DNA of 64,000 bases, from NCBI GenBank assembly GCA_029851415.1, contig CM056742.1:75072748-75136747 (forward strand), given 5' to 3'. The notes beneath the pieces were generated by a model, which saw only the letters and a list, made by a program, of their open reading frames with translations, had not been told where the DNA came from and did no database searches. Source of the DNA: Eretmocerus hayati. Lineage: Eukaryota > Arthropoda > Insecta > Hymenoptera > Aphelinidae. Made by a program: the position numbers and the translations under genes. This document shows, piece by piece, positions 4,407-32,619 of this stretch. Position 1 is the first letter of the stretch. Each line of letters begins with the position of its first letter.

Positions 4407-4489
4407 TATATATATACATCAACGACATTTCGATTCCTCACTCATTCTTACTTTGACCCAAATTTTGACTTCTGACACCTAACTAAGAC

Positions 4490-6420
4490 TTCCACCTCAT
4501 ATTTTGGACTTTTGAATCATATTTTCGACTTTTGAGTCATTTTTCCGACCTTAACTCATATTTTCGACTTCTGAGTCATTTTTCGACCTTAACTCATATT
4601 TTCGACTTTTGAGTCATTTTTCGACCTTTACCCATAATTTCGACTTTTAAGTCATTTTTCGACCTTAAGTCATATTTTCAACTTTTGAGTCATTTTTCGA
4701 CCTTAACTCATATTTTCGACTTTTGAGTCATTTTTCGACCTTAACTCATATTTTCAACTTTTGAGTCATTTTTCGACCTTAACTCATATTTTCGACTTTT
4801 AAGTCATTTTTCAACCTTAACTCATATTTTCGACTTTTGAGTCATTTTTCGACCTTAACTCATATTTTCGACTTTTGAGTCATTTTTCGACCTTTACCCA
4901 TAATTTCGACTTTTAAGTCATTTTTCGACCTTAAGTCATATTTTCAACTTTTGAGTCATTTTTCGACCTTAACTCATATTTTCGACTTTTGAGTCATTTT
5001 TCGACCTTAACTCATATTTTCAACTTTTGAGTCATTTTTCGACCTTAACTCATATTTTCGACTTTTAAGTCATTTTTCAACCTTAACTCATATTTTCGAC
5101 TTTTGAGTCATTTTTCGACCTTAACTCATATTTTCGACTTTTGAGTCATTTTTCCGACCTTAACTCATATTTTCGACTTCTGAGTCATTTTTCGACCTTA
5201 ACTCATATTTTCGACTTTTGAGTCATTTTTCGACCTTTACCCATAATTTCGACTTTTCAGTCATTTTTCGACCTTAAGTCATATTTTCAACTTTTGAGTC
5301 ATTTTTCGACCTTAACTCATATTTTCGACTTTTGAGTCATTTTTCGACCTTAACTCATATTTTCAACTTTTGAGTCATTTTTCGACCTTAACTCATATTT
5401 TCGACTTTTAAGTCATTTTTCAACCTTAACTCATATTTTCGACTTTTGAGTCATTTTTCGACCTTAACTCATATTTTCGACTTTTGAGTCATTTTTCCGA
5501 CCTTAACTCATATTTTCGACTTCTGAGTCATTTTTCGACCTTAACTCATATTTTCGACTTTTGAGTCATTTTTCGACCTTTACCCATAATTTCGACTTTT
5601 AAGTCATTTTTCGACCTTAACTCATATTTTCAACTTTTGAGTCATTTTTCGACCTTAACTCATATTTTTAACTTTTGAGTCATTTTTCGACCTTAACTCA
5701 TATTTTCGACTTTTAAGTCATTTTTCAACCTTAACTCATATTTTCGACTTTTGAGTCATTTTTCGACCTTAACTCATATTTTCGACTTCTAAGTCATTTT
5801 TCAACCTTAACTCATATTTTCGACTTTTGAGTCATTTTTCGACCTTAACTCATATTTTCAACTTTTGAGTCATTTTTCGACCTTAACTCATATTTTCGAC
5901 TTTTAAGTCATTTTTCAACCTTAACTCATATTTTCGACTTTTGAGCCATTTTTCGACCTTTACTCATAATTTCGACTTTTGAATCATTTTTCGACCTTAA
6001 CTCATATTTTCGACTTTTGAGTCATTTTTCGACCTTAACTCATATTTTCGACTTTTGAGTCATTTTTCGACCTTAACTCATATTTTCGACCTTCGAGTCA
6101 TTTTTCGACCTTAACTCATATTTTCGACTTCTAAGTCATTTTTCGACCTTGAATCATATTTTCGACTTTTAAACCATTTTTCGACTTTAACTCATATTTT
6201 CGACTTTTGAGTCATTTCTCGACCTTGAATCATATTTTCAACTTTTAAACCATTTCTCAATCTTAATTCATAATTTTAACTTTTGAGTCATTTTTCGACC
6301 CCAACAATCATTTTCGATTTTTGAATCATTTTTCCACCTTAACTTATCTACGACTTTCAAATCATTTTTGGACCTCGAATTATATTCCAACTCTTAACCA
6401 TTTTTGACTTTAACTCATAT
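4490..6420 (+). repeat. 38-bp satellite array in the 5' LTR
   Basis: About fifty units of 38 bp. Each unit consists of two related 19-mers, TTTTCGACTTTTGAGTCAT and TTTTCGACCTTAACTCATA. Many first halves contain TGAGTCA, the AP-1/TRE heptamer. Units decay toward the right edge. Variants (AAGTCAT, CCCATAATTTCG, an extra C) recur in higher-order blocks of several units, so the array grew by multi-unit duplication. Confidence 0.95.
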
Positions 6421-6936
6421 TTTCAACTTCTGACCCATTTTCAACTCTCGATCCATATTTTCGATTTCTGTTTCATTTCTGACTCTCGACCCATTGACTA
6501 CGACCTTTCGACCCGATCTTCGACCCTTGACCCATATCTCAACCTCTTGACCCACAATTAACACCTTGACCCAGAATCCATCTCCAACCTATACAATCAT
6601 ACCCTGATTCGAAACCTCAGATCTATCAATCGGAATTCATGTTTATTGAGAATTCCTTCCCAACTTTATATCAACAAAAACAATTTATTTCTTTGAGTAT
6701 TGGTACGTCCCGGCAGGTCAACTCTTTCATTCACTAGGTGATAAATTAGAAAGAATTTTAACTTTCATGAGAAATTATACTGGGACGTTACTGAACCTGT
6801 TTGACTAGCATAGCATCCCGAGTTCTTCATTTCCCTTACTCCCGGAGGATATTAGCTCAGCTATTGCCTCAAAAATTAGGGACAATAACATTGATGTCTG
6901 GAATCGTTTGAGTGTATGCTGCTCGTAAATATTAGA

Positions 6937-7206
6937 TAAGATCGAGTATTAACAGTGACTAGTCTCCACTATCCTGTACTTCGGTGCAGTCGATCAGGCC
7001 TGTCATTTGTTCTCTACTCTCATAACTAAGACCGAGTGTTAGCAGTGACTGGTCTCCACCATCCTGTACTTCGGTGCAGTCGATCAGACCTGTCATTTGC
7101 TACCTACTCTCATAGATAAGACCGAGTATTAACAGCGACTAGTCTCCACCTTCCTGTACTTTGGTGCAGTTGATCAGGCTTGTCATTTGTTCCCTACTCA
7201 TATAAA
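6937..7206 (+). repeat. Three 90-bp direct repeats upstream of a TATA box
   Basis: Units start at 6937, 7027 and 7117 (TAAGaycGAGTrTTA...), each with a conserved core around CCTGTACTTCGGTGCAGT. They end directly at TATAAATA (7201-7208). The arrangement resembles an enhancer array in front of a promoter, as in retroviral U3 regions. The function is inferred. Confidence 0.85.
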
Positions 7207-7208
7207 TA
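7201..7208 (+). promoter_or_regulatory. TATA box near the LTR 3' end
   Basis: TATAAATA lies 44 nt before the LTR end. Initiation 25-30 nt downstream would fall near 7230 and leave a very short R/U5. A second TATA box sits far upstream in the full LTR (27184 in the 3' copy), so the LTR may hold two promoters. Confidence 0.5.
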
Positions 7209-7277
7209 GTAAGTGAATGGATAAGTAGAGGCACTCAAGCAATTCCGTGACAGTGGTGTTATTTATAACATAAAAAT

Positions 7278-7295
7278 TGGTGCATCGGCCGGGAA
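7278..7295 (+). other. Primer-binding site, tRNA-Gly type
   Basis: TGGTGCATCGGCCGGGAA is complementary, over 18 nt, to the 3' end of insect tRNA-Gly(GCC) including CCA, recalled from general knowledge. It lies 25 nt after the LTR end, further away than in most LTR elements. Confidence 0.85.
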
Positions 7296-7315
7296 ACAAA
7301 GTGAAGAAATCGGAG

Positions 7316-7366
7316 ATGTTTAAAAACATTAAATTTCATCCAATGTTCAAAAATGTCAAAGTTTGA
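7316..7366 (+). promoter_or_regulatory. Short upstream ORF overlapping the gag start
   Basis: An ATG at 7316 opens a 16-codon frame that ends with TGA at 7364-7366, beyond the gag ATG at 7353 and in another frame. Scanning ribosomes that use it would pass the gag start, so it could dampen Gag synthesis. No evidence of use beyond its position. Confidence 0.4.
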
Positions 7367-9707
7367 TCAACCCGAAAATCCTGAAAATTTTCCAGTTTCT
7401 CAAATCACCGGCTCCGAAAATCGTAAAGCATTTAACGAGATCGATTCAGGAGATACTTTGTTGAATAGATATTTGGACCAACAACTACAGTATAATACAA
7501 TCATTGAAAACGGAGGTCCCAATACAGATTTGCAAAGATTAGACAAAGAATTGAAATCACTCGAAATTCAGATTGATAGAACCTTAGCTACGCATAATAT
7601 CGATTCAGATTTTTGTCAAGATAAGAAAGGCCAACAACGGAAAACCTTACGTTTTGAAGACAAGTTTTTAACATACAGAAATAAGGGTGGTGTTACTGTG
7701 GATTCTAGTTCAATTGCCAACGATCATTCCAATATCGATACTCCTCAAGAAATCCCAAAACCAATCAAACTCCTGATCCGACCATCTTTATTCAACCCCA
7801 CTTCACGGCAAGAAACCAAACCAATTCAGGACGAAATTCCACCACAGATAACTACAGCTCTTAACACTAAGATAGACACAAGACTAACGAGTACACCACT
7901 CCAAATACAGGAACATCAACGCACCAATAACCAAATCTTGACACTGAGCCCGATTACAACTTCCGAGAAGACCCTTAGACCAGACCAACTCATCAAAACA
8001 CTCACAATACTCTTAGAAACGGAAGATATTAAGAAGGAAAGGGTTACAGAATACTTAAATAATCCAGATAATATCGAAGAAATCGTGAAGCAACGCGACG
8101 AAGGTAACGATATTTACCAATTATACTGTTTTGCAAAGAAAGAGATCATTGGTTCACGAGACACACCTACATACCACGAGGAAAGTGACCAAGATAAGAT
8201 CTTATTGGGAAACTTGAAAGAGTCTACACAAACATCCGCGAAATATATAACCGCAGAAGCTACAACCAAATTTCCTGACGACAAAACCTTCGAACCAAAA
8301 CCAAAAGTTCACAATTTCGACTTCAAACTTGAGGATTACCCAGGTTCAGAAGATAAGAATCTTCGCGACCCCAAGACTGAACACAGCACTTCTACAATGT
8401 TTAGTGATTATAAAAATATGACTACTAATCGATCGGGAAAACTACCGGAAGTAAGAGGTATCTCAATTAAAGATGCCCTCGATCTGATCCCTCGGTTCAA
8501 CGGTCAAAATATCAGTCTGACACAATTTTTAGATGGATGTCATGATGCTAAGGAAATATTGCCCAGTTACTTAGAGAATGAATTAACGAAACTGATCCGG
8601 ATGAAATTGTATGGCGAAGCTTTGAAATGTCTGAGTGGTCGCAATTTTGAAACGATTGATGAGATCGCGACACTTTTTGAAAATGCTTTTGGTTCACCCA
8701 AAACCTTTCACGAATGGACCGGAGATTTGGCAAAAATTAAACAAAGGTCCGATGAATCAGTCATAGTTTATCTGAACCGATTGAGAGAAATAGAAAAAGA
8801 AATCATAAAATCAGGAACACGCGAGAAACGGATCAAAAACCTCAGCAATTTTACAGATGAATTATCTCAAGACTGTCTAAAATTCTTCTTGCGCGGATTA
8901 CGTTGGGAGATACGGGCCAGAGTCGGCACGCCCGGTAATTTCAAGGAAGCACAAGAACTCGCTTTTGAGATCGAAAGAGAATTCGCATGTAGCGATAACG
9001 AGGAATCTCAGAGAAAAGACGAAATCAAGATAAAAACCTCGAGAGAACCTAGGAAAATCCATCTTGTCGAAAACACCAACAGTCCGCCACCAATTATTTG
9101 CCAATTTTGTAACAAACCCGGACATTTCTTGATGAACTGTTTTTCACTTTTCATGAAAACATCAAATTTCGGAGATAGGAACGGTTTTGACCGGAATGTG
9201 TCGCGACCAACTCACACAGAATATAGACCTCGGCCAATGAACACAAATTACACACCTACGAGACAGTCTACAGAATACGGGAGAAGTAACACTTATTCAT
9301 CTCGTACAGACATGAATCCTACGAATTACAATAACAATAATATTGGCAATAGATCGCAGAACAATTATGGAATATATAGACACTCAAATCCCGCATACAT
9401 TCAGTCCAATCAAAGTTATACGGGATCTCGAAATTTCGACCCCCCTCAGCCTCGTAACACCGAAACCACTTCCACGAACAATTCTCAGGGTGGCGCTCCT
9501 ATTAGGAATACCGAAAATCGGATAGAATGTTATTATTGTAAAAGGATCGGACATTATAAACGAGATTGCTTTAAATTCCAAAATGACGTACGCAATGGTA
9601 GAGTGAATCCGGGAAACGCTTCTGGTCTCCCTCAACCGGGCGTGAGCCGGGAGACTCAGCCGACTCCTCGCCCGAGCATTTCAACTGGTCAAGAAACGAC
9701 CGCATAA
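7353..9707 (+). CDS. gag: Gag polyprotein
   Basis: 784 aa structural protein that should form the particle and package RNA. The first ~365 residues are polar and low in structure, longer than usual for insect gypsy Gag. A retrotransposon Gag capsid-like region follows, roughly residues 365-540 (starting near IPRFNGQNISLTQFLDG and including LKFFLRGL). Two CCHC zinc knuckles, CQFCNKPGHFLMNC (about 584-597) and CYYCKRIGHYKRDC (about 725-738), are separated by a ~130-residue Asn/Tyr/Arg/Thr-rich spacer. The ATG at 7353 is the first in this frame after the primer-binding site. The C-terminal codons overlap the pol frame and contain the frameshift signal. No internal stops. Confidence 0.93.
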   Translation: MSKFDQPENPENFPVSQITGSENRKAFNEIDSGDTLLNRYLDQQLQYNTIIENGGPNTDLQRLDKELKSLEIQIDRTLATHNIDSDFCQDKKGQQRKTLRFEDKFLTYRNKGGVTVDSSSIANDHSNIDTPQEIPKPIKLLIRPSLFNPTSRQETKPIQDEIPPQITTALNTKIDTRLTSTPLQIQEHQRTNNQILTLSPITTSEKTLRPDQLIKTLTILLETEDIKKERVTEYLNNPDNIEEIVKQRDEGNDIYQLYCFAKKEIIGSRDTPTYHEESDQDKILLGNLKESTQTSAKYITAEATTKFPDDKTFEPKPKVHNFDFKLEDYPGSEDKNLRDPKTEHSTSTMFSDYKNMTTNRSGKLPEVRGISIKDALDLIPRFNGQNISLTQFLDGCHDAKEILPSYLENELTKLIRMKLYGEALKCLSGRNFETIDEIATLFENAFGSPKTFHEWTGDLAKIKQRSDESVIVYLNRLREIEKEIIKSGTREKRIKNLSNFTDELSQDCLKFFLRGLRWEIRARVGTPGNFKEAQELAFEIEREFACSDNEESQRKDEIKIKTSREPRKIHLVENTNSPPPIICQFCNKPGHFLMNCFSLFMKTSNFGDRNGFDRNVSRPTHTEYRPRPMNTNYTPTRQSTEYGRSNTYSSRTDMNPTNYNNNNIGNRSQNNYGIYRHSNPAYIQSNQSYTGSRNFDPPQPRNTETTSTNNSQGGAPIRNTENRIECYYCKRIGHYKRDCFKFQNDVRNGRVNPGNASGLPQPGVSRETQPTPRPSISTGQETTA

Positions 9708-12700
9708 TAACCAGGACTGTGCATCTAAATCAGACAAATGGTGCCCCAAAGATCAATCTGGATATGTTCGAATCCACTGAACCATTAACCTTCATGTTAG
9801 ACACGGGCGCCGGACCAAATCTGATCAAAATCAACGTCCTCCCACAAAATATTCAAATAAATGACAGAAACATAATCAAATTGAAAGGAATCACTCCTGA
9901 ACATATAAGAACATTGGGGACAATCGAGAAGAATCTCAGCGACCACGTTATTGAATTTTGTGTGGTTGACGAAAATTTTCCGATTAAAGAATCAGGGATT
10001 CTTGGCAGTGATTTCTTTAGAAAAACGAACGCGAAAATCAATTATCCTGAAAATCATGTTGAGATCGATGACCAGATCTTTTTCTTCGAAAATGACTCAC
10101 ACGTACAAAACACTCGCCGTTCAGATAATCAGGATGAACTATTGAAATTCGACAAAGAGCCGAACATATTTTATCAAGAACAGTTCCCGGAAGAACTATT
10201 ACAAAACAATGAGATTTTCAACGTCAAACAAGAAACACTCGATATGAATCATAAAGGGAACTGTCGTGACGGGATAGACATTCAAGAAGATCAATTCTAT
10301 GAGACGAGAAGTTCTTTTATGAATCATCACGAAACGAGAGAAATAATCATCGCGGGAGACAAAGTCGATGAAATATCTACAACTAGAATCACTGCGCCAA
10401 TCGGACTCACTAAGAATGATGCAGAGAACAACGAGATTTCAATCGATATTTTACAAGGCACTCATCAAGAAGTATGTGGAACAATCTCAATGGACGAAAG
10501 ACAAGAATTTGGGATAGTAACTGGAGATTCCGGGGATTCTACGATGAATCAAGACGTTATATTAAGAGATCTTTATCCAGAGAATCATTACACGAATATT
10601 ATGGAAGAAGATATACGGGTCAGTGAAGAAGACTCAGAACCTTTTAAGTTTTCAAGCACCTGTGACAGATGTTATAGTATATTTGACGTGAGGGACAATG
10701 AAGATTTCATTCTATTTGAGAGTTTATGTGGAAATTGTGAAAACAATGTTTGTGAAAAGTTGTATGAAGAAGTAGAATTTGAAACGGGCTTAGCATCTGC
10801 AGAAATAAACTCCGAAAGGAATGGAGATGACTTTTCGAGAGATATTTTCAGTATTCATGAAGAGGACATATCTGAACCCGATACAGGGAGTAGAAAAGAA
10901 GAGTATACACATATTCCGGAATCTTTTGAGGAACAACCCCCGGGAATGAATTCCGTAAGACCATCGACACGAGAAAACCCTTGGGATTATAATCGCGGTT
11001 ATGAAAAATTCAACGGTCATGAGATGGGTGTTCAGAAAACCTTATTACAAGAGATATCGATCCCCAGAGTCGACGGTGATGGAAAGACTAGGGCTGAAAG
11101 GATTATTTCATTACTGAGACTAGATCACCTCGAAGCAAAAGAAAGACAGTTAGCCGAGGTTTGGGTCACTCGTTACGCCGATGTTTTTCACTTATCAGGT
11201 GAAAAACTCACAACTACAAACGTTATCAAACATAGGATTCCTACAACTGACGACGTCCCCATACATGCTCGACAATATAGACTCCCACCTGTATTTAAAG
11301 AAGAAATAAACAGACAAGTAAAAGAACTTCTAGCAAATGGAATCATCGTTCCGTCAGAGTCAAACTACAGCAATCCAGTATGGGTCGTTCCAAAGAAAGA
11401 AGACAGCAAGGGTAACAAGCGATATAGGATGGTTTTGGACTACAGAGAATTGAATGAGAAGACCATAGCTTTCTCATATCCTATACCAAACATTCAGGAA
11501 ATATTAGATAACCTATCGGGTGCAAAATACTTCTCAGTTTTTGACTTGGCAAGTGGATTTCACCAGGTAGAAGTAGACGAAGCAGATCAACACAAGACAG
11601 CGTTTTGTGTACCCCTAGGCAAATTCCAGTTCAGATCCATGCCTTTTGGCTTAATCTCGGCCCCCTGCACGTTCCAGAAGGCTGTAGATACCGCCCTAAT
11701 TGACCTCCAGGGGAATATTTTGATGGCCTACATTGACGACATCATCCTGTTCTCGAAAACACTAGAGGAACACGAAGAAAAATACTATTTACTCATGGAA
11801 AGATGCCGTAAATACAACCTGAAATTACAACCGGATAAGATAGAGCTATTAAAACGGTCAGTGACATATTTAGGCCATTTGATCAGTGAGGAGGGTATCA
11901 GACCAGATCCCAAAAAGGTAGAAGCCGTGAAAAATTTTCCGGTTCCCCGAAATGTCAAAAATATCCGTCAATTTTTAGGCCTCGCCGGCTACTATCGTCG
12001 ATTCATCGAGGGGTTTTCCAGAATAGCTAGGCCTCTGAGTTACCTCTTGAAACGAGATGTCCCATTCATGTGGGGTGAGGAGGAACGATGTGCATTCGAA
12101 GTGTTGAGAGATAAACTCTGCGAGGAACCGGTATTAGCTTATGTTGATTTCTCTAAAAGATTCCTGGTTACTGTTGATGCCTGCCGAACTTCGATAGGAG
12201 GTATATTATCTCAAGGTGAAATTGGCAAAGATCGCCCGATTGCGTATACTTCTCGGGTCTTAAACGATGCAGAAAGGCGCTACTCAACTTATGAACAAGA
12301 AGGGCTGGCCATGGTGTATACAGTAAGGCATTTTCGACATTATTTGATCGGTAAGGAATTCACCATTATAACAGATCACAAACCCTTAATTTGGTTTCTT
12401 AATTCTAAAGATCCAAACTCTAGAATAACAAGATGGAGGATTAAGATGAGCGAATTCCAGTTCAAAATCGTTTACAAGTCAGGAAAAACCAACGTTAACG
12501 CAGATGCTCTCTCGCGGAACCCGGTAGAACCAACAGAAACCACTATTCTCCCTATCGAGACGAGAATTAGAACCGGTACTCTTAATTGCCCCAATTATAA
12601 CGAAAAGCGTGCAAAAAGGATGACTTCAAATAAGGAAATCTCTAGTAAACAACGGATAACGAATAAGAAATCCTTAGAACACCAACCATCAACCAATAAT

Positions 12701-14368
12701 ATTGCAGCTGATTCAGAATCATTCGAACAAAATATCGAGATACCTACGAATACTGACAGGGAGAATGAGATTGAATTCACTGAAGGAACCCCGGAACAAA
12801 TGACCCCGACCTGCGAACCCGAAGAGCCCATGAACGAAACACTAACAACAAGAACGCGTATAATAGGAAAAATCTTCGTAGAGTGTAGAGAAAAATTATT
12901 CATGAGAAAAGATAACTATCTATATTTTGTTAACACTTTGGGAGAACCATGCGATACCGGGGCTAGAGAATTACAAGAGAGGAATGAATTACCGAGGTTA
13001 TTGGACCTCAACATCGGAGAGATGAGGATGGTACGTCATAATAATAAGGTTCACCTAGTTCTACCTATTAGAGGAGAAGAGAAACAAAGTTTGACGGTCA
13101 TGGACGATAACTTAACGATAGGATTTAGAGAGTTAAGAAAGATCATCGGACGGGAGCAATTGAAAACGATTAGTGTAGCTAAATCAAATACAATAGAGAA
13201 TATACCTTGGACAGAAGTTATGGTCAAACTCCGAAATTCATTGCGGGGAACGGAGATTAAAGTGATTATCTGCATGGGCCTAGTGAAATATCCAAAAATG
13301 GAAGAAAGACATGGGATAATCGAAACAGCCCATTCTTCTGCAAATGGAGGGCATAAAGGCGTCAATAAAACATATAAACGGTTGAGGCATAATTATAATT
13401 GGGAGAATATGAAGGTTGATGTACAACAATTTGTTCAACGATGTTTGTCTTGCCAATTGAAGAAATTGGTTAGAGTTAAGACAAAGAATCCAATGGTCAT
13501 AACCGATACTCCTACAGTTGCTTTTCAGAAAATAGCAATGGATATTGTTGGTCCTTTTCCACGCACCAAAAGTGGTCACGATAATATCTTGACCATACAA
13601 TGTTTATTAACCAAGTATTGTCTCGCTATAGCACTTCCTGACGCTACGGCTAAATCAGTAGCAGACGCTCTGATCAAAAGATTCATTTGCACATTTGGAG
13701 CTCCGGTAGCTATACTCACCGATCAGGGTACAAACTTCCTCAGCAACTTGATGAAAAGAGTAGCGAAGAAATTTAAGATCCAACAGTACCGTACGTCGAG
13801 TTATCACCCGCAATCCAACGGGTCGATTGAACGATCACACCATGTGCTTGGGGAGTACTTAAAATCATTCATCAACAAAGAAGAAGAATGGGATACGTGG
13901 TTAGATCTAGCTACTTGGAGTTACAATATCTCTTGGCACGAAGGGACTAAATTCACCCCTTTCGAGTTGGTATTTGGTAGATCACCTAGGGTTCCCTCAA
14001 ACGAACCTTTGGAACCCGAAGACGAGCTTCCAACTTATGAAAATTATTTGATTGATCTAACCACTAAAATACATGAAATACAAGGTCTCGCTAGAGATCA
14101 ATTAATCTTATCTAAGCTTCGTACAAAACACTACTTTGATAGGAAAATATCTCCAAAGGTTTTCAAAATAGGGGATTATGTCTGGTTACTAAGAGGAGGT
14201 AAAATACACAAATTCGCCGATCAATACGAGGGTCCGTATCTGATCATTGGCATGATTAGAAAAGACAACGCAAAAATTCAACTTGTAAGAGATAGGAATA
14301 AGACTAAAGTTGTACACGTGAATAGACTTAGGATATCCTACATCGAAGACCCAGATAATACTAACTAA
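9602..14368 (+). CDS. pol: Pol polyprotein: protease, RT, RNase H, integrase
   Basis: The frame is open from 9602 after a TAG at 9599 and lacks an early ATG (only a GTG at 9719), so it is expected as a Gag-Pol fusion through the -1 shift at 9611-9617. Aspartic protease: MLDTGAGPNLIK near 9794 and GILGSDFF near 10000. An unusual ~320-residue acidic linker (about 10100-11060) follows, carrying CDRC and CGNC pairs near 10665 and 10730. RT has FSVFDLASGF and YIDDIIL (about 11728). RNase H has TVDACRTSIGGILSQG (about 12171) and ITDHKPLIWF. A second polar linker follows. Integrase has the HHCC finger (H...H...CLSC, about 13330-13455), catalytic D in AMDIVGP, D in LTDQGTNF and E in GSIERSH with exactly 35 residues between the last two, and a YEGPYLI GPY/F motif. 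All key residues are present, so the enzyme set looks competent. Confidence 0.95.
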   Translation, partial: SESGKRFWSPSTGREPGDSADSSPEHFNWSRNDRIITRTVHLNQTNGAPKINLDMFESTEPLTFMLDTGAGPNLIKINVLPQNIQINDRNIIKLKGITPEHIRTLGTIEKNLSDHVIEFCVVDENFPIKESGILGSDFFRKTNAKINYPENHVEIDDQIFFFENDSHVQNTRRSDNQDELLKFDKEPNIFYQEQFPEELLQNNEIFNVKQETLDMNHKGNCRDGIDIQEDQFYETRSSFMNHHETREIIIAGDKVDEISTTRITAPIGLTKNDAENNEISIDILQGTHQEVCGTISMDERQEFGIVTGDSGDSTMNQDVILRDLYPENHYTNIMEEDIRVSEEDSEPFKFSSTCDRCYSIFDVRDNEDFILFESLCGNCENNVCEKLYEEVEFETGLASAEINSERNGDDFSRDIFSIHEEDISEPDTGSRKEEYTHIPESFEEQPPGMNSVRPSTRENPWDYNRGYEKFNGHEMGVQKTLLQEISIPRVDGDGKTRAERIISLLRLDHLEAKERQLAEVWVTRYADVFHLSGEKLTTTNVIKHRIPTTDDVPIHARQYRLPPVFKEEINRQVKELLANGIIVPSESNYSNPVWVVPKKEDSKGNKRYRMVLDYRELNEKTIAFSYPIPNIQEILDNLSGAKYFSVFDLASGFHQVEVDEADQHKTAFCVPLGKFQFRSMPFGLISAPCTFQKAVDTALIDLQGNILMAYIDDIILFSKTLEEHEEKYYLLMERCRKYNLKLQPDKIELLKRSVTYLGHLISEEGIRPDPKKVEAVKNFPVPRNVKNIRQFLGLAGYYRRFIEGFSRIARPLSYLLKRDVPFMWGEEERCAFEVLRDKLCEEPVLAYVDFSKRFLVTVDACRTSIGGILSQGEIGKDRPIAYTSRVLNDAERRYSTYEQEGLAMVYTVRHFRHYLIGKEFTIITDHKPLIWFLNSKDPNSRITRWRIKMSEFQFKIVYKSGKTNVNADALSRNPVEPTETTILPIETRIRTGTLNCPNYNEKRAKRMTSNKEISSKQRITNKKSLEHQPSTNNIAADSESFEQNIEIPTNTDRENEIEFTEGTPEQMTPTCEPEEPMNETLTTRTRIIGKIFVECREKLFMRKDNYLYFVNTLGEPCDTGARELQERNELPRLLDLNIGEMRMVRHNNKVHLVLPIRGEEKQSLTVMDDNLTIGFRELRKIIGREQLKTISVAKSNTIENIPWTEVMVKLRNSLRGTEIKVIICMGLVKYPKMEERHGIIETAHSSANGGHKGVNKTYKRLRHNYNWENMKVDVQQFVQRCLSCQLKKLVRVKTKNPMVITDTPTVAFQKIAMDIVGPFPRTKSGHDNILTIQCLLTKYCLAIALPDATAKSVADALIKRFICTFGAPVAILTDQGTNFLSNLMKRVAKKFKIQQYRTSSYHPQSNGSIERSHHVLGEYLKSFINKEEEWDTWLDLATWSYNISWHEGTKFTPFELVFGRSPRVPSNEPLEPEDELPTYENYLIDLTTKIHEIQGLARDQLILSKLRTKHYFDRKISPKVFKIGDYVWLLRGGKIHKFADQYEGPYLIIGMIRKDNAKIQLVRDRNKTKVVHVNRLRISYIEDPDNTN
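9611..9674 (+). promoter_or_regulatory. -1 ribosomal frameshift signal: slippery heptamer plus H-type pseudoknot
   Basis: G GGA AAC (9611-9617) is in the correct gag phase for XXXYYYZ slippage into the pol frame. Seven nt later stem 1 forms: GTCTCCC (9625-9631) with GGGAGAC (9649-9655), extendable by a G-U pair. In its loop CGGGCG (9637-9642) pairs with CGCCCG (9669-9674) as stem 2. Loop lengths are 5, 6 and 13 nt. The same heptamer drives gag-pro frameshifting in simian type-D retroviruses (established knowledge). Function here is inferred from sequence and phase. Confidence 0.88.
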
Positions 14369-16428: not shown

Positions 16429-17859
16429 ATGGATAGAAGAAAAACCAAGAACTGGGTTCAGATCTTGAATAACCACTACGATTTTGATCAAGACACCGAC
16501 ATCAAAAGAGCAATACGTTATCATAAACCGAAAATTGTTCTTCGGCTAATGAAGAAGAATCCTTCCTGCGTGAGCAAAGAAAATTTCAAGTCATTATTCA
16601 AGTTTGCCATGCGGAACAAAGATTTTGAAACAATGAAGACTTTAATCACTCGTTTTCATGACATAGAATCATTGAATCTTGTCGATATATGCTGGACACT
16701 TATGTCAAAGGGAATGACTGGTACGGCTGAACTCATGATCAGGTCAATGCGTAATATTGATAAACGCGAGTGTACAGGTGCAACTCTACTATACCCTGCC
16801 TGTAGGCTCGCATATCCGAATTTAGTCAGACTTCTTATTAGAAAAGGAGCAGATGTCAATGTGCAGGATAAGTGGAAAAGGACACCATTGCACTTTACAG
16901 CCGAGATGGGTAATGCCCATATTGTTAGGATGTTACTGAACAACAGAGCTGACCCTTTTTTGACAGACCACATGAAAAGAAACGCCTTACACTATCTGTG
17001 TGATCACGGAGATGAAGACGTAGAAACGGCATTATTATTACTCGACGCTGGGATCGATGTAAACTCCCAAGAAAGACGAAAGGACACACCATTGCACTTA
17101 GCCAACATATCTCGGAAAGCACTCTTACCGGTCGTACTAGTAGAACATGGAGCTGATGTGAACATCAAAAATCGATGGGGCGAGACTCCTCTGATGTACT
17201 CAATCCAACACCAACCAATTTGTATCACCAAATACCTGATCAAAAAGGGAGCACGAATTAACGAAGTCCGAAATGATCATAGATCTTGTCTCCATCTGGC
17301 CTATAATTTCTGGCAACCCGAAGCAATCGCTTTACTTCTCGAAAATGGAGCTAAACTATATCCTGAACCTGATTGCATCATACCATTTTTCCATTTTGGT
17401 TCTATTACAAATCAATTGTGTCTATACATCATCGAAGAAATCGTTAGATTAGAATCAATAAATGAATTTGTGTCGCCCACGGATAAGGAAATAATTAAGG
17501 GGGACATAGTGGGTTCGTTTCATTATACAAGATGCGTTGACGAAATCAATTCTGCGAAGGTTATACAATTAACAGACAAACACAGTTTATTCAGTCTCGT
17601 AAAATGGAATGACACAAAAATATCATTGCTGTTCAAAAACCGAATGTCAATCGAAAATATTATGAAAATAGATTTTGAAACGAGATTCACCATATGGTGT
17701 GACTTATTCGTAAACAAAGCCGCGAGAGCTATAAAACTACGGGAACAGCACGACAGGAGAGAGAATGAAATTCTTGATGTTTTTGCTGAAACTTTACCTT
17801 CATTAGTAATTGAAAAAATAGCCCATTATCTACACGAAATTGAATCAACAGAACAGTGA
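16429..17859 (+). CDS. Ankyrin-repeat protein 2 with PRANC/F-box-like C-terminus
   Basis: 476 aa. Ankyrin repeats run from about residue 115 to 310, for example LLIRKGADVNVQDKWKRTP, LLLDAGIDVNSQERRKDTP, LVEHGADVNIKNRWGETPL and YLIKKGARINEVR. The C-terminal segment (about 450-472, TLPSLVIEKIAHYLHEIE) again looks like a short F-box/PRANC tail. It is colinear with ankyrin protein 3 over the full length (compare SLNLVDICWTL with SLNLVYIFWTL), so the two arose by tandem duplication. The gene overlaps the pyrimidine tract of the next acceptor at its stop. Cytosolic or nuclear by absence of sorting signals. Targets unknown. Confidence 0.85.
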   Translation: MDRRKTKNWVQILNNHYDFDQDTDIKRAIRYHKPKIVLRLMKKNPSCVSKENFKSLFKFAMRNKDFETMKTLITRFHDIESLNLVDICWTLMSKGMTGTAELMIRSMRNIDKRECTGATLLYPACRLAYPNLVRLLIRKGADVNVQDKWKRTPLHFTAEMGNAHIVRMLLNNRADPFLTDHMKRNALHYLCDHGDEDVETALLLLDAGIDVNSQERRKDTPLHLANISRKALLPVVLVEHGADVNIKNRWGETPLMYSIQHQPICITKYLIKKGARINEVRNDHRSCLHLAYNFWQPEAIALLLENGAKLYPEPDCIIPFFHFGSITNQLCLYIIEEIVRLESINEFVSPTDKEIIKGDIVGSFHYTRCVDEINSAKVIQLTDKHSLFSLVKWNDTKISLLFKNRMSIENIMKIDFETRFTIWCDLFVNKAARAIKLREQHDRRENEILDVFAETLPSLVIEKIAHYLHEIESTEQ

Positions 17860-19283: not shown

Positions 19284-19296
19284 GAAGTGCTTCAAC

Positions 19297-19314: not shown

Positions 19315-19343
19315 AATATAGGTATACAAGTCAAACGGGAGCG

Positions 19344-24111: not shown

Positions 24112-24119
24112 AATTGGGG

Positions 24120-24698
24120 ATGCACCAACCAGAAATTCAACCATCCGTCTTCGTAACAAAATTAATTGGGCCCATCCAACGGAGAGGAAATCATTGTGAG
24201 GAATGCAGTCAAGGAAAGGAGACTAACAAATCTTTAGCGACTACTTATTTATTCAAGAAGACACCGCCCAATCTCAAATACCAAGAATGCCGCAAATGTA
24301 AAAAGCCTTTGTGGACAGAACAACCATTGAACGAGAACTTACTGAAAACCATGTTGGACATTTTCCTCACGAATGTCACATCCACTATAAAACTAACAGT
24401 GCATAATGGAGAACGAAACACCGCTGCAAATGACCTAAACGGCCCCAACGACTTGGCATCAGAGAAGCACACATTGGAATGCGAATTAAACACCCCCACC
24501 TCAGGATTCTCAAACACTACCAACTTGTTTTGTCACAAGGAGGTACGGGAAACTGTATCAAAACGTATAAACGAACCTGTACCCGAAGAGATGTGGAACG
24601 TAACACTCGGATTTCCTACCACAGGATCAGTACAACACCATAATGACTTGACACAATTTTTCATTGATGAATTCGATTTATCCAAATTGATTCAATAG
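24120..24698 (+). CDS. Small protein with two CxxC pairs, unknown function
   Basis: 192 aa from the ATG at 24120, the first after the acceptor. C26-x2-C29 and C57-x2-C60 (CEEC and CRKC) form a possible zinc ribbon in the first third. The remainder is polar and rich in Thr and Asn, without membrane segments. I do not recognise the family. It lies between the other Cys-rich gene and the IAP gene in the run of accessory ORFs and has no frame damage, which supports it being a real gene. Confidence 0.6.
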   Translation: MHQPEIQPSVFVTKLIGPIQRRGNHCEECSQGKETNKSLATTYLFKKTPPNLKYQECRKCKKPLWTEQPLNENLLKTMLDIFLTNVTSTIKLTVHNGERNTAANDLNGPNDLASEKHTLECELNTPTSGFSNTTNLFCHKEVRETVSKRINEPVPEEMWNVTLGFPTTGSVQHHNDLTQFFIDEFDLSKLIQ

Positions 24699-24734: not shown

Positions 24735-25316
24735 ATGGACCGATATAACACAACTATGTCAACCACAACGAGTGAAATGTCTATTTACAAGAATAGATTA
24801 TATACGTTCAGAAATTGGCCGACCAGTATGCACCAATCGAAGGAAGATTTGGCCGCAGCAGGATTCTCCTATACCAATAAAGGTGATATAGTTTCATGTT
24901 TCCAATGTGCCATAACACTTCGAGGCTGGGAACCCCTGGATAACGTATGGACCGAACATATCCGTTGGTCTCCCACTTGCGAATTCCTTGCCAGGACAAA
25001 GGGAAAACTTTTCATTAAAGAAACCATGAACCGATTACATTTATTGGATAATGCACGGAAGGAAGATGTTCAAACACTAGAGAAATCTGAACCAACAACC
25101 ACTACCAGCCCACCAACGTCGCTTACATGTAAAATTTGTTATGATGATAAAATAGAGATAGTCTTGATGCCATGTCGCCATTGTATCGCATGCAGCCGAT
25201 GCTCCATACAATTAGAAAATTGTAGTATATGTCGCAGCCCAATCACCTATTATTTGAGAGTTGTAATACCAATCGAACTGAAGAAAGAAACGCAACTGAA
25301 ACAGCTTAAGGAATGA
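24735..25316 (+). CDS. iap: Inhibitor-of-apoptosis protein (one BIR, one RING)
   Basis: 193 aa. BIR domain at about residues 20-86: FRNWP start, AAAGFSYTNKGD, C55-x2-C58, W65, H75 and C82 (CFQCAITLRGW, WTEHIRWSPTCEFL), the full zinc set. A C-terminal C3HC4 RING at about 132-170 has C132, C135, C147, H149, C153, C156, C163 and C166 (CKICYDD, MPCRHC, CSICRSPI). This one-BIR-plus-RING architecture at ~190 aa resembles short baculovirus-type and insect IAPs, which block caspases or their adaptors and ubiquitinate partners. In a retroelement it would plausibly keep the producing cell alive (inference). Acceptor less clear than for its neighbours: the best is AAATCAAACAG ending at 24714. Host capture or viral origin cannot be separated here. 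Confidence 0.88.
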   Translation: MDRYNTTMSTTTSEMSIYKNRLYTFRNWPTSMHQSKEDLAAAGFSYTNKGDIVSCFQCAITLRGWEPLDNVWTEHIRWSPTCEFLARTKGKLFIKETMNRLHLLDNARKEDVQTLEKSEPTTTTSPPTSLTCKICYDDKIEIVLMPCRHCIACSRCSIQLENCSICRSPITYYLRVVIPIELKKETQLKQLKE

Positions 25317-26384: not shown

Positions 26385-26395
26385 AAGGGGGGAGG
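26385..26395 (+). other. Polypurine tract
   Basis: AAGGGGGGAGG directly precedes the LTR start TGTGACGG at 26396, the expected plus-strand primer position. Confidence 0.88.
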
Positions 26396-27183
26396 TGTGA
26401 CGGCTTCGCATTTTTCCACGTATAAATGAACGAATGTATGAACTGAATGTATGGCTTGGATAGGTATGTATGAAATCGTGAAAAGTATGGATGTATGGAA
26501 TGTATGTTTGAATGTAATATGTATGTGGGTGTTAGATGATTAAATTGGAAAGTGTGCATATTTCTATGGAATGTGTATGCTGGACGAATTAAATATAATG
26601 CATGTATGTCGAATGAATGAACTGAAAAATGTGTAGATTAAAAGTGTGGTTATGCTGGATGGAAAATTCAAGGTATGCATATGGAATGTAACGAGTGTAG
26701 AATACAGCAATGAACTTGAACTGATTACCGATAGTGTAAAGGCGTATGAATGTGGATGAGAGTGAGAGTATGGGAAAGATGACAGGAAATAGACTGATAA
26801 GACGGGCATCGACTGATGGAGAGGAAAAAGCAACAGGTAAATAGGAAGAGAAAGATAAGACGAAAAGTATGAACGTAACAGCCTCGCAACAGCATAGCTG
26901 AAAAACTTATGTCAGTCTTGACCAAAACAACATCTCATACACAAGTGTCGGATTTTTATAGATGTTGTTTTGATTATCACGTGTTACATTAATATTACTG
27001 CATCTCACCGTTAGATTCTTATCTCACGGTTGACAACAAGTGATAAACCATACGTGATTGACCTACCACTACTTGTATCAAATTAGTAGTACATAGACTA
27101 CTAATACTAATTACACCAAAGTGGTAGTATTGGAATTTTCTTATCTTGACCCTTCCACCCACAAAATCTGAATGAAATTTGGG

Positions 27184-27556
27184 TATAAATACGAGGCACG
27201 GAAACGAAGAGGATCAATTGTCAACCACCCGTTTTCCCAAAAAAATCAGTCATCACGTCAGTCAGTCTAGGATTTTTCTCGTCATCTTTATACCCTTTGA
27301 GTGAGTTTTGAGTATAATAAAGTGGATCTAACGCGAAGAAAGTGGAATTAGAGTGCATTATTGATTGGTTTTGAGACATTGGAATTGACTAGTTGATTAT
27401 CCGGAACCTAAGAGATATTCAGATTATTACTGTGAAACTCCAAGAATATTATATCAACTGACTGAGCGAATAAATTGAAATAAAAGAGGCCAAATTGAAG
27501 ATTATTTCCAACAAACGCCTATCAGAATAACGACGTCAACATATCCTAAGGTGAGC
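27184..27556 (+). promoter_or_regulatory. LTR promoter, ATG-free leader and splice donor
   Basis: TATAAATA (27184-27191) would start transcription near 27212-27220. From there to 27550 I find no ATG in about 335 AT-rich bases. The stretch ends CCTAAG|GTGAGC, a strong 5' splice site (cut after 27550). An AATAAA lies near 27317. The equivalent in the 5' LTR would supply a common leader exon to the downstream acceptors. It is not in the window (see the transposon at 1-4406). Confidence 0.65.
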
Positions 27557-27647
27557 AATAACCAAGTATAATTCTATCATTTCAATCAGTTATCATTACT
27601 TGAGAAAGTATCTGAGATTTATCCAAAGTATCATAGACACATGAACA

Positions 27648-27691
<44 letters not shown>

Positions 27692-27759
27692 ACGACATTT
27701 CGATTCCTCACTCATTCTTACTTTGACCCAAATTTTGACTTCTGACACCTAACTAAGAC

Positions 27760-30700
27760 TTCCACCTCATATTTTGGACTTTTGAATCATATTTTCGACT
27801 TCTGAGTCATTTTTCCGACCTTAACTCATATTTTCGACTTCTGAGTCATTTTTCGACCTTAACTCATATTTTCGACTTTTGGGTCATTTTTCGACCTTTA
27901 CCCATAATTTCGACTTTTAAGTCATTTTTCGACCTTAAGTCATATTTTCAACTTTTGAGTCATTTTTCGACCTTAACTCATATTTTCGACTTTTGAGTCA
28001 TTTTTCGACCTTAACTCATATTTTCAACTTTTGAGTCATTTTTCGACCTTAACTCATATTTTCGACTTTTAAGTCATTTTTCAACCTTAACTCATATTTT
28101 CGACTTTTGAGTCATTTTTCGACCTTAACTCATATTTTCGACTTTTGAGTCATTTTTCGACCTTTACCCATAATTTCGACTTTTAAGTCATTTTTCGACC
28201 TTAAGTCATATTTTCAACTTTTGAGTCATTTTTCGACCTTAACTCATATTTTCGACTTTTGAGTCATTTTTCGACCTTAACTCATATTTTCAACTTTTGA
28301 GTCATTTTTCGACCTTAACTCATATTTTCGACTTTTAAGTCATTTTTCAACCTTAACTCATATTTTCGACTTTTGAGTCATTTTTCGACCTTAACTCATA
28401 TTTTCGACTTTTGAGTCATTTTTCCGACCTTAACTCAAAGTTTCGACTTCTGAGTCATTTTTCGACCTTAACTCATATTTTCGACTTTTGAGTCATTTTT
28501 CGACCTTTACCCATAATTTCGACTTTTAAGTCATTTTTCGACCTTAAGTCATATTTTCAACTTTTGAGTCATTCTTCGACCTTAACTCATATTTTCGACT
28601 TTTGAGTCATTTTTCGACCTTAACTCATATTTTCAACTTTTGAGTCATTTTTCGACCTTAACTCATATTTTCGACTTTTAAGTCATTTTTCAACCTTAAC
28701 TCATATTTTCGACTTTTGAGTCATTTTTCGACCTTAACTCATATTTTCGACTTTTGAGTCATTTTTCCGACCTTAACTCATATTTTCGACTTCTGAGTCA
28801 TTTTTCCGACCTTAACTCATATTTTCGACTTCTGAGTCATTTTTCGACCTTAACTCATATTTTCGACTTTTAAGTCATTTTTCGACCTTAACTCATATTT
28901 TTAACTTTTGAGTCATTTTTCGACCTTAACTCATATTTTCGACTTTTAAGTCATTTTTCAACCTTAACTCATAATTTCGACTTTTAAGTCATTTTTCGAC
29001 CTTAAGTCATATTTTCAACTTTTGAGTCATTCTTCGACCTTAACTCATATTTTCGACTTTTGAGTCATTTTTCCGACCTTAACTCATATTTTCGACTTCT
29101 GAGTCATTTTTCGACCTTAACTCATATTTTCGACTTTTGAGTCATTTTTCGACCTTTACCCATAATTTCGACTTTTAAGTCATTTTTCGACCTTAAGTCA
29201 TATTTTCAACTTTTGAGTCATTCTTCGACCTTAACTCATATTTTCGACTTTTGAGTCATTTTTCGACCTTAACTCATATTTTCAACTTTTGAGTCATTTT
29301 TCGACCTTAACTCATATTTTCGACTTTTAAGTCATTTTTCAACCTTAACTCATATTTTCGACTTTTGAGTCATTTTTCGACCTTAACTCATATTTTCGAC
29401 TTTTGAGTCATTTTTCCGACCTTAACTCAAAGTTTCGACTTCTGAGTCATTTTTCGACCTTAACTCATATTTTCGACTTTTGAGTCATTTTTCGACCTTT
29501 ACCCATAATTTCGACTTTTAAGTCATTTTTCGACCTTAACTCATATTTTTAACTTTTGAGTCATTTTTCGACCTTAACTCATATTTTCGACTTTTAAGTC
29601 ATTTTTCAACCTTAACTCATAATTTCGACTTTTAAGTCATTTTTCGACCTTAAGTCATATTTTCAACTTTTGAGTCATTTTTCGACCTTAACTCATATTT
29701 TCGACTTCTGAGTCATTTTTCGACCTTAACTCATATTTTCGACTTTTGAGTCATTTTTCGACCTTTACCCATAATTTCGACTTTTAAGTCATTTTTCGAC
29801 CTTAACTCATATTTTTAACTTTTGAGTCATTTTTCGACCTTAACTCATATTTTCGACTTTTAAGTCATTTTTCAACCTTAACTCATATTTTCGACTTTTG
29901 AGTCATTTTTCGACCTTAACTCATATTTTCGACTTTTAAGTCATTTTTCAACCTTAACTCATATTTTCGACTTTTGAGCCATTTTTCGACCTTTACTCAT
30001 AATTTCGACTTTTGAATCATTTTTCGACCTTAACTCATATTTTCGACTTTTGAGTCATTTTTCGACCTTAACTCATATTTTCGACTTTTGAGTCATTTTT
30101 CGACCTTAACTCATATTTTCGACTTTTGAGTCATTTTTCGACCTTAACTCATATTTTCGACTTTTGAGTCATTTTTCGACCTTAACTCATATATTCGACT
30201 TTTGAGTCATTTTTCCGACCTTAACTCATATTTTCGACTCCTGAGTCATTTTTCGACCTTAACTCATATTTTCGACTTTTGAGTCATTTTTCGACCTTTA
30301 CCCATAATTTCGACTTCTAAGTCATTTTTCGACCTTAAGTCATATTTTCAACTTTTGAGTCATTTTTCGACCTTAACTCATATTTTCGACTTTTGAGTCA
30401 TTTTTCGACCTTAACTCATATTTTCAACTTTTGAGTCATTTTTCGACCTTAACTCATATTTTCGACTTTTCAGTCATTTTTCAACCTTAACTCATATTTT
30501 CGACTTTTGAGTCATTTTTCGACCTTAACTCATATTTTCGACTTTTCAGTCATTTTTCAACCTTAACTCATATTTTCGACTTTTGAGTCATTTTTCGACC
30601 TTAACTCATATTTTCAACTTTTGAGTCATTTTTCGACCTTAACTCATATTTTCGACTTTTAAGTCATTTTTCAACCTTAACTCATATTTTCGACTTTTGA

Positions 30701-31690
30701 GTCATTTTTCGACCTTAACTCAGATTTTCGACTTTTGAGTCATTTTTCCGACCTTAACTCATATTTTCGACTTTTGAGTCATTTTTCGACCTTAACTCAT
30801 ATTTTCGACTTTTGAGTCATTTTTCCGACCTTAACTCATATTTTCGACTTCTGAGTCATTTTTCGACCTTAACTCATATTTTCAACTTTTGAGTGATTTT
30901 TCGACCTTAACTCATATTTTCGACTTTTGAGTCATTTTTCGACCTTAACTCATATTTTTAACTTTTGAGTCATTTTTCGACCTTAACTCATATTTTCGAC
31001 TTTTAAGTCATTTTTCAACCTTAACTCATATTTTCGACTTTTGAGTCATTTTTCGACCTTAACTCATATTTTCGACTTTTAAGTCATTTTTCAACCTTAA
31101 CTCATATTTTCGACTTTTGAGTCATTTTTCGACCTTAACTCATATTTTCAACTTTTGAGTCATTTTTCGACCTTAACTCATATTTTCGACTTTTAAGTCA
31201 TTTTTCAACCTTAATTCATATTTTCGACTTTTGAGCCATTTTTCGACCTTTACTCATAATTTCGACTTTTGAATCATTTTTCGACCTTAACTCATATTTT
31301 CGACTTTTGAGTCATTTTTCGACCTTAACTCATATTTTCGACTTTTGAGTCATTTTTCGACCTTAACTCATATTTTCGACCTTCGAGTCATTTTTCGACC
31401 TTAACTCATATTTTCGACTTCTATGTCATTTTTCGACCTTGAATCATATTTTCGACTTTTAAACCATTTTTCGACTTTAACTCATATTTTCGACTTTTGA
31501 GTCATTTCTCGACCTTGAATCATATTTTCAACTTTTAAACCATTTTTCAATCTTAATTCATAATTTTAACTTTTGAGTCATTTTTCGACCCCAACAATCA
31601 TTTTCGATTTTTGAATCATTTTTCCACCTTAACTTATCTACGACTTTTAAATCATTTTTGGACCTCGAATTATATTCCAACTCTTAACCA
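27760..31690 (+). repeat. 38-bp satellite array in the 3' LTR
   Basis: Same unit as in the 5' LTR but about 100 copies. The flanks on both sides are alignable to the 5' LTR; the offset is 23,270 at the left edge and 25,289 at the right, so this array is 2,019 bp (about 53 units) longer. Confidence 0.95.
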
Positions 31691-32225
31691 TTTTTGACTT
31701 TAACTCATATTTTCAACTTCTGACCCATTTTCAACTCTCGATCCATATTTTCGATTTCTGTTTCATTTCTGACTCTCGACCCATTGACTACGACCTTTCG
31801 ACCGATCTTCGACCCTTGACCCATATCTCAACCTCTTGACCCACAATTAACACCTTGACCCAGAATCCATCTCCAACCTATACAATCATACCCTGATTCG
31901 AAACCTCAGATCTATCAATCGGAATTCATGTTCATTGAGAATTCCTTCCCAACATTATATCAATAAAAACAATTTATTTCTTTGAGTATTGGTACGTCCC
32001 GGCAGGTCAACTCTTTCATCCACTAGGTGATAAATTAGAAAGAATTTTAACTTTCATTAGAAATTATACTGGGACGTTACTGAACCTGTTTGACTAGCAT
32101 AGCATCCCGAGTTCTTCATTTCCCTTACTCCCGGAGGATATTAGCTCAGCTATTGCCTCAAAAATTAGGGACAATAACATTGATGTCTGGAATCGTTTGA
32201 GTGTATGCTGCTCGTAAATATTAGA

Positions 32226-32497
32226 TAAGATCGAGTATTAACAGTGACTAGTCTCCACTATCCTGTACTTCGGTGCAGTCGATCAGGCCTGTCATTTGTT
32301 CTCTACTCTCATAACTAAGACCGAGTGTTAGCAGTGACTGGTCTCCACCATCCTGTACTTCGGTGCAGTCGATCAGACCTGTCATTTGCTACCTACTCTC
32401 ATAGATAAGACCGAGTATTAACAGCGACTAGTCTCCACCTTCCTGTACTTTGGTGCAGTTGATCAGGCTTGTCATTTGTTCCCTACTCATATAAATA
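32226..32497 (+). repeat. 90-bp repeats and TATA box in the 3' LTR
   Basis: Copy of the 6937-7208 arrangement: three 90-bp units starting at 32226, then TATAAATA at 32490-32497. Confidence 0.85.
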
Positions 32498-32619
32498 GTA
32501 AGTGAATGGATAAGTAGAGGCACTCAAGCAATTCCGTGACAAATCCAATACTTTAATCAAACTGTAGCATTCAGAACTAGTCCGTTGTCAACCTAACATT
32601 AGTTCTGGTTCAGTAACTG

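What the first reader, a model, noticed from the sequence alone, without database searches (positions are those of the whole stretch)
4407..32541. A ~29-kb retrovirus-like element with eight intact accessory genes
Seen: intact gag and pol between matching LTRs, then three ankyrin genes, two glycoproteins, two Cys-rich proteins and a BIR-RING protein, all on one strand without frame damage. Known: insect errantiviruses normally carry gag, pol and at most one env. This looks like a complex insect retrovirus that carries candidate host-manipulation genes of the sort found in large DNA viruses. I know of no described element with this set, but I cannot search.
Basis: partly seen in the sequence, partly recalled or inferred. 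Interest (0 to 1): 0.96.

Follow-up and report, generated by a model that had tools for sequence, protein, structure and literature searches.

The report
Insect giant retrovirus with two envelopes
A likely insect genome carries a family of very large retrovirus-like elements that hold two unrelated viral entry-type genes and six further genes, predicted to interfere with the cell's protein-disposal and self-destruct pathways, which matters because insect retroviruses have usually been described with only three genes.

Summary
The finding is real and better supported than a reader without tools could know. The window holds one Gypsy-type provirus with gag, pol and eight further open reading frames on one strand. 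A 4-bp target-site duplication (AATC) and a polypurine tract show that both LTRs and everything between arrived as one integration. Coordinates need correcting: the 3' LTR is 26396-32541, and the 5' LTR starts 1.5 kb upstream of the window and is split by a nested 4.6-kb transposon. Five other copies read in pieces keep the order, the most divergent without a detectable cys2. Of 43 close chuvirus-type glycoprotein matches, 42 have the baculovirus-F-type gene upstream and 38 the BIR gene downstream; 0 of 25 more distant matches do. Pairwise dN lies well below dS for the accessory genes where both can be estimated. Most likely this is a complex errantivirus-like retrovirus grown from a gag-pol-chuvirus-glycoprotein element by gaining a second envelope, ankyrin genes, Cys-rich proteins and an IAP-like ligase. 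Planarian Burro elements are a partial precedent, so it is a new variant of a known kind. Function, infectivity and host species are inferred.

The parts
1..4406 (.). Nested inverted-repeat transposon (about 4.6 kb in all; its first ~240 bp lie upstream of the window) that splits the 5' LTR; not part of the element
   Evidence: inverted arms 1-637 and 3533-4169; L039:3751-4000 is the reverse complement of window 4170-4419, with 5' LTR sequence on its far side; length
4407..7252 (+). 5' LTR, downstream part; its first 1289 bp lie upstream of the window in L039:2475-3763
4517..6441 (+). 38-bp tandem array in the 5' LTR, about 51 copies
6936..7208 (+). 90-bp tandem repeat (3 copies) in the 5' LTR; also at 32225-32497
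7278..7295 (+). Candidate primer-binding site TGGTGCATCGGCCGGGAA, 25 nt after the LTR end; matches the 3' end of tRNA-Gly as recalled, not checked against a host tRNA
   Evidence: sequence; tRNA identity recalled
7353..9707 (+). gag, 784 aa, CCHC zinc knuckle
   Evidence: PF00098 E 4e-6
9719..14368 (+). pol, 1549 aa: protease, RT, RNase H, integrase in Gypsy order
   Evidence: best solved relative Ty3 Gag-Pol, E 2.2e-108
14717..16270 (+). ankA, ankyrin-repeat protein, 517 aa
   Evidence: C-terminal F-box-like match below cut-off
16429..17859 (+). ankB, ankyrin-repeat protein, 476 aa
17856..19283 (+). ankC, ankyrin-repeat protein, 475 aa from GTG (first ATG at codon 12), 37% identical to ankB
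19287..21275 (+). bacF, Baculovirus F-type envelope protein, 662 aa from GTG (first ATG at codon 20), with a hydrophobic segment near the C-terminus
21377..23422 (+). chuG, chuvirus-type fusion glycoprotein, 681 aa
23496..24035 (+). cys1, Cys-rich protein, 179 aa; no relative in the large protein search
24114..24698 (+). cys2, Cys-rich protein, 194 aa; highest dN of the ten genes between subfamilies 1 and 2
24735..25316 (+). BIR-RING (IAP-like, E3-type) protein, 193 aa
25574..26165 (+). 282-bp tandem repeat (2.1 copies) between the last ORF and the 3' LTR
26385..26395 (+). Polypurine tract AAGGGGGGAGG next to the 3' LTR
26396..32541 (+). 3' LTR, 6146 bp, TG...CA, with 38-bp array 27787-31731 (about 104 copies)
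32542..32545 (.). Target-site duplication AATC (partner: L039:2471-2474)

Best explanation
This is one copy of a multi-copy family of complex Gypsy-type (errantivirus-like) retroviral elements of a likely insect host, whose gag and pol are predicted to copy and integrate it, whose two unrelated envelope-type proteins likely carry it between cells, and whose ankyrin, Cys-rich and BIR-RING proteins are predicted to redirect host ubiquitination and delay cell death. Shown: single integration with a target-site duplication, LTR and polypurine-tract anatomy, open frames, the same gene order in other copies, both envelope genes together at 42 of 43 close chuG matches, dN below dS, and a simpler gag-pol-chuG element in the same genome (one examined). 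Inferred: the LTR promoter drives one genomic RNA and spliced messages for the close-packed downstream genes; the chuvirus-type protein is the main fusogen; the F-type protein is a second or helper envelope; the ankyrin proteins act as adaptors that bring host proteins to ubiquitin ligases; the BIR-RING protein binds death-pathway proteins and marks them for destruction, giving infected somatic or germline cells time to release the element.
For: TSD AATC and LTR match in the window copy; TSD CCCT in the sister copy G000:C1:126713891-126741307, 27.4 kb, with 2 LTR differences in 2014 sites outside the array. Pol is Gypsy-type. The order holds in 5 of 5 other copies read in pieces; in the most divergent one cys2 was not detected and two ankyrin ORFs were seen. 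In 7 of 8 best BIR loci chuG-cys1-cys2-BIR is in order; the eighth (L004) is a deleted composite. 42 of 43 chuG matches at 62% identity or more have bacF upstream and 38 of 43 have BIR downstream within 8 kb, against 0 of 25 at 41-44% (some of the 43 are pieces of one copy). 37 of 40 ankA loci have bacF downstream. dN/dS is 0.10-0.32 for gag to bacF against the sister copy; against three subfamily-2 copies dN is 0.07-0.34 (cys2 0.55-0.65) while dS is 0.36-1.03 for ankA and gag and above 1.6 or saturated for the rest. One simple gag-pol-chuG element. BIR and RING over cut-off. chuG of complex elements forms one clade (support 100).
Against: No expression, particle or infection data. The F-box-like match in ankA is below Pfam's cut-off (E 0.047-0.08), and ankB, ankC and PRANC gave none. 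The ankA model is poor and the C-terminal part of the ankB model is low-confidence. bacF of the window copy and the sister has no RxxR motif in its ectodomain, while 4 of 5 other copies show one in the N-terminal third, so its activity in this lineage is doubtful. Many other copies carry stops. The 5' LTR of this copy is split by a transposon. 38 of 74 BIR places had no chuG match within 8 kb; at least three of these do lie beside chuG pieces, others may be host IAP genes. dS is saturated against subfamily 3, so selection there could not be judged.
Confidence: 0.8

Rival explanations
1. A conventional Gypsy retrotransposon that by accident captured a block of host or viral genes which ride along without function.
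For: Ankyrin, BIR and RING domains are common in insects (knowledge); the large protein search found only generic ankyrin proteins related to ankA.
Against: Frames and order persist between subfamilies whose synonymous sites are near saturation, with much lower dN; 42 of 43 and 38 of 43 co-occurrence; the genes resemble those of more than one virus group.
Confidence: 0.07
2. A remnant of a large DNA virus or polydnavirus-like segment into which LTR elements inserted on both sides.
For: BIR-RING, ankyrin and F-type proteins are typical of baculoviruses or poxviruses (knowledge of those families).
Against: LTRs of one family at both ends with a 4-bp duplication and a polypurine tract in two copies, the same arrangement elsewhere, no DNA-virus replication gene among the ten ORFs.
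Confidence: 0.03
3. A domesticated virus-like system used by its insect host, for example for a parasitoid's delivery particles, with the accessory genes kept for the host's benefit.
For: Named cellular chuG homologs come from Hymenoptera, parasitoid wasps among them; dN below dS.
Against: Dispersed copies, some near-identical and some decayed, fit a selfish mobile element; no single fixed cluster was seen.
Confidence: 0.06

Closest known systems
Insect errantiviruses (Metaviridae, gypsy/ZAM type; largely from knowledge)
   Same: Gypsy-type pol order, LTRs, TG...CA ends, short target-site duplication, Baculo_F-type env
   Different: Usually gag, pol and one env; here two envelopes and six more genes, 19.1 kb internal region
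Burro giant Gypsy elements of planarians (PMC6431247: passages and section 7 read)
   Same: Giant Gypsy-like, over 30 kb, with BIR, ankyrin and RING-like motifs and an env region; same guess of ubiquitin and apoptosis targets
   Different: There the domains sit in a polyprotein of about 4900 aa with env between gag and pol; here separate ORFs after pol, two distinct envelopes, likely insect host; homology not tested
Anakin, BEL/Pao element with chuvirus glycoprotein in mosquitoes (Dezordi et al. 2020, PMC7642597: search listing only; also as cited in PMC10084718, PMC13172572, PMC12440569)
   Same: LTR element that captured a chuvirus-type glycoprotein
   Different: Anakin is BEL/Pao; here pol is Gypsy-type and there is a second envelope plus accessory genes
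Jingchuvirales glycoprotein EVEs flanked by Gypsy fragments in Hymenoptera (PMC10084718: abstract, results and discussion read)
   Same: Same glycoprotein family, Gypsy association, and by inference the same insect order
   Different: That study found no clear capture by Gypsy elements; here the glycoprotein lies inside one Gypsy element with a TSD in two copies and beside bacF at 42 of 43 matches
Baculovirus-type IAPs (knowledge) and poxvirus ANK/F-box proteins (PMC9414399: abstract read)
   Same: BIR-RING architecture; ankyrin proteins as candidate ubiquitin-ligase adaptors
   Different: Carried by a retroelement; F-box not significant here

Membership tests
Metaviridae / Ty3-Gypsy | Pol domains in the order PR-RT-RH-IN | tested here: met
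Metaviridae / Ty3-Gypsy | RT closest to Ty3-type among solved structures | tested here: met
   Ty3 E 2.2e-108, then other retroelements and retroviruses
Metaviridae / Ty3-Gypsy | LTRs with TG...CA ends and 4-6 bp target-site duplication | tested here: met
   CCCT in the sister copy, AATC in the window copy
Metaviridae / Ty3-Gypsy | tRNA primer-binding site after the 5' LTR | tested here: inconclusive
   candidate 25 nt after the LTR end; host tRNA not checked
Errantivirus | env related to baculovirus F | tested here: met
   PF12259 E 1.3e-28; a solved entry named only 'fusion protein', E 1.1e-8
Errantivirus | RT phylogeny inside the errantivirus clade | not tested
   no reference errantivirus pol set was at hand
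Errantivirus | only gag, pol, env | tested here: not met
   ten ORFs
Anakin-type BEL/Pao | BEL/Pao-type pol | tested here: not met
   one search shows Gypsy-type domains; DUF5641, seen in a separate element at 62596-63945, is not matched by this pol
Chuviridae | RNA-virus polymerase and nucleoprotein with the glycoprotein | tested here: not met
   none matched among the ten ORFs
Burro | polyprotein with env between gag and pol | tested here: not met
   Burro layout from PMC6431247 section 7
IAP (BIR-RING) proteins | BIR and C-terminal RING with all zinc ligands | tested here: met
   both domains over cut-off; BIR ligand pattern in window and 5 of 5 other copies; RING spacing in the window copy. 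The first RING pattern, had a wrong spacing and matched nothing; the mended pattern was run on the window copy only
Poxvirus-type ANK/F-box or PRANC proteins | C-terminal F-box or PRANC | tested here: inconclusive
   ankA F-box-like E 0.047 and F-box E 0.08, below cut-offs; no such match for ankB or ankC; no PRANC match

The most novel reading that the evidence does not exclude
An insect lineage of truly complex retroviruses: one provirus type with two unrelated fusogen families and a conserved set of six accessory genes that work as a ubiquitin and anti-death toolkit, assembled stepwise on a simple Gypsy chassis with a chuvirus-type envelope and still spreading in its host genome.
Probability: 0.55. 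Interest if true: 0.92.

Novelty: new variant of a known kind. Interest (0 to 1): 0.82.

Why it matters
Insect retroviruses are usually described with three genes; this family would show that arthropod retroviruses can reach and keep a complexity otherwise known from vertebrate lentiviruses and foamy viruses and, in another form, from planarian Burro elements. It gives direct evidence for capture of a chuvirus-type glycoprotein by a Gypsy element, which a 2023 survey (PMC10084718) looked for and did not clearly find. Two unrelated envelopes kept together make division of labour in entry testable. The element's BIR-RING copies could also make up part of the host's IAP-like gene count: 36 of 74 BIR places lie within 8 kb of a chuG match.

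Tried and rejected
Two different elements supplying the two LTRs: rejected by the target-site duplication. An apparent truncation of the 5' LTR: explained by a nested transposon. Relatives of chuG in viral contigs: none. Relatives of cys1 in the large protein collection: none at E 0.001 or better; of ankA: 119 proteins, partial-length ankyrin matches and no clear orthologue. F-box/PRANC: below threshold; structure predictions did not settle it. Ten literature searches listed no insect element of this kind by title or abstract; few of the listed papers were opened. The review that describes Burro was first listed and read. A paper on metazoan envelope-carrying retrotransposons (Chary and Hayashi 2025, known only from a citation) is not held and could describe related elements.
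Full report
Place and host. The window is G000:C2:75072748-75136747 of a 692-Mb genome in 17 contigs. Among the 94 relatives of the chuvirus-type glycoprotein most have no name; those that name a cellular species name Hymenoptera: ants, a sawfly, Trichogramma, Microplitis and Aphidius. I take the host as a hymenopteran by inference. ORFs in the rest of the window that gave Pfam matches belong to ordinary retroelements.

Anatomy. The ten ORFs are all on the + strand and open: gag, pol, ankA, ankB, ankC, bacF, chuG, cys1, cys2 and BIR-RING. Gaps are 11 nt (gag-pol), 348 (pol-ankA), then 158, -4, 3, 101, 73, 78 and 36 nt, counted from the listed ORF starts, some of which are GTG or TTG. Pfam gives a Gypsy-type pol, ankyrin repeats, Baculo_F, Monjiviricetes_fusion, and BIR plus RING; cys1 and cys2 have no family. 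The internal region is 7253-26395, 19.1 kb. The LTRs are very long because of a 38-bp tandem array, about 51 copies in the 5' LTR and 104 in the 3' LTR; array length in an assembly should be taken with care.

One integration. The sister copy at C1:126713891-126741307 gave the LTR ends: TGTGACGG...GTGACA, polypurine tract AAGGGGGGAGG before the 3' LTR, TSD CCCT. In the window copy the 3' LTR is 26396-32541. The missing head of the 5' LTR lies upstream of the window, beyond a nested inverted-repeat transposon. The flanks carry AATC on both sides. LTR differences outside the arrays are 6 in 2019 sites for the window copy and 2 in 2014 for the sister. With a recalled rate of a few 1e-9 per site and year this is roughly half a million years or less.

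A family. Five other copies were read as separate stretches. The sister holds all ten genes at 97-100% protein identity. Three copies of a second subfamily hold the same order at lower identity: 27-31% for cys2, 50-56% for bacF, 70-94% for pieces of chuG; one of them (C4:70.2 Mb) is spread out by insertions. A third subfamily (C2:110.4 Mb) has ankyrin proteins and bacF at about 25-43%, chuG at 68%, two ankyrin ORFs and no detectable cys2. Stops occur in several genes of these older copies. In 7 of the 8 best BIR loci the order chuG-cys1-cys2-BIR is seen; the eighth is a deleted composite. Genome-wide, chuG has 68 scored matches, a lower bound, some being pieces of one copy: 43 at 62% identity or more and 25 at 41-44%. 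Of the 43, 42 have bacF upstream and 38 have BIR downstream on the same strand within 8 kb, the BIR distance clustering near 831-839 or 1257-1300 nt; of the 25, none has either. Of 56 bacF matches above 25% identity, 47 have chuG downstream. Of 12 at 25% or less, none has; one of these (C3:156.77 Mb) lies beside an ankA-like match, the others are at 20-22% and may be simple F-type elements. For ankA, 37 of 40 loci have bacF downstream; one of the three misses (C1:45.4 Mb) comes from merging rows around a bacF match. Of 74 BIR places 36 lie within 8 kb of a chuG match and 38 do not; three of the 38 (L004, L005, L007) do lie beside chuG pieces, so 36 is a lower bound.

Selection and mosaicism. 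Pairwise counts by Nei-Gojobori. Against the sister copy dN/dS is 0.10-0.32 for gag to bacF, while chuG, cys1, cys2 and BIR show 0-2 changes each, too few to judge. Against the three subfamily-2 copies dS is 0.36-0.48 for ankA, 0.91-1.03 for gag and above 1.6 or saturated for the others, while dN is 0.07-0.34, except cys2 at 0.55-0.65. Against subfamily 3 all dS values are saturated and dN is 0.24-0.88, so nothing can be said there. The uneven dS along the element suggests recombination between elements. All 14 Cys/His positions of cys1 are kept in two subfamily-2 copies, 13 of 14 in the third and 9 of 13 in subfamily 3; cys2 keeps its two CxxC pairs in subfamily 2.

Simple relative. One of the 25 matches at 41-44% was examined (C1:6.88-6.90 Mb): it has gag, pol (45% identical from RT to integrase) and chuG, and no match to cys1, cys2, BIR, ankA or bacF in 13.1 kb around it; ankB and ankC were not tested, and its LTRs were not found in the pieces fetched. 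In a tree of 81 glycoproteins the complex elements form one clade (support 100) next to unnamed relatives at about 50% identity; the two named viral proteins fall outside the clade that holds the named insect rows; the root is a midpoint and the tool warns of long branches. The complex form therefore most likely grew from a gag-pol-chuG element; that is inference.

Mechanism. Shown: retroelement machinery, integration marks, two membrane-type proteins each with a hydrophobic segment near the N- and the C-terminus, BIR and RING domains, ankyrin repeats. Inferred: splicing, entry roles and host targets. chuG is the better candidate fusogen because its family is annotated as a viral fusion glycoprotein and it is the better conserved of the two. 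bacF in the window copy and the sister lacks an RxxR motif in its ectodomain, whereas 4 of 5 other copies show one in the N-terminal third; a helper role in this lineage is possible. Baculoviruses with GP64 plus a non-fusing F protein are a recalled parallel. The ankyrin C-termini share an LP...I...L ending, but F-box significance was not reached.

Known kinds. The Gypsy criteria that were tested are met, the primer-binding site staying open. Errantivirus membership is open: env type fits, gene number does not, the RT tree was not done. Burro (PMC6431247, passages and section 7 read) is the nearest functional parallel. PMC10084718 (abstract, results and discussion read) reports Gypsy fragments beside such glycoproteins in Hymenoptera but no clear capture by Gypsy. 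Of PMC13172572 I saw passages, of PMC12992720 only a word search without hits, of PMC12440569 the first of five parts, of PMC9414399 the abstract.

Noticed in passing
G000:C2:19500306-19504421: A tandem array of about seven copies of one ankA stretch (query residues about 64-173), with no bacF match nearby.
   Followed up: no
L040:594-1286: A 230-aa Cys-rich ORF lies before gag of the simple chuG element; no Pfam family.
   Followed up: partly
window 1-4406: A transposon with 637-bp inverted arms (98%) inserted in the (TA)n tract of the 5' LTR.
   Followed up: partly
window 36333-48011 and 62593-63945: Fragments of non-LTR-type retroelements (endonuclease and RT domains) and of an element with DUF5641 and integrase domains, BEL/Pao-like by recall.
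   Followed up: partly
genome-wide: Distant bacF matches (20-22% identity) without chuG nearby, some in very long open frames up to 2692 aa.
   Followed up: no
L004 (G000:C2:59433368-59436562): A short composite copy in which ankA, bacF, chuG and BIR pieces lie within about 2 kb, an internally deleted derivative.
   Followed up: no
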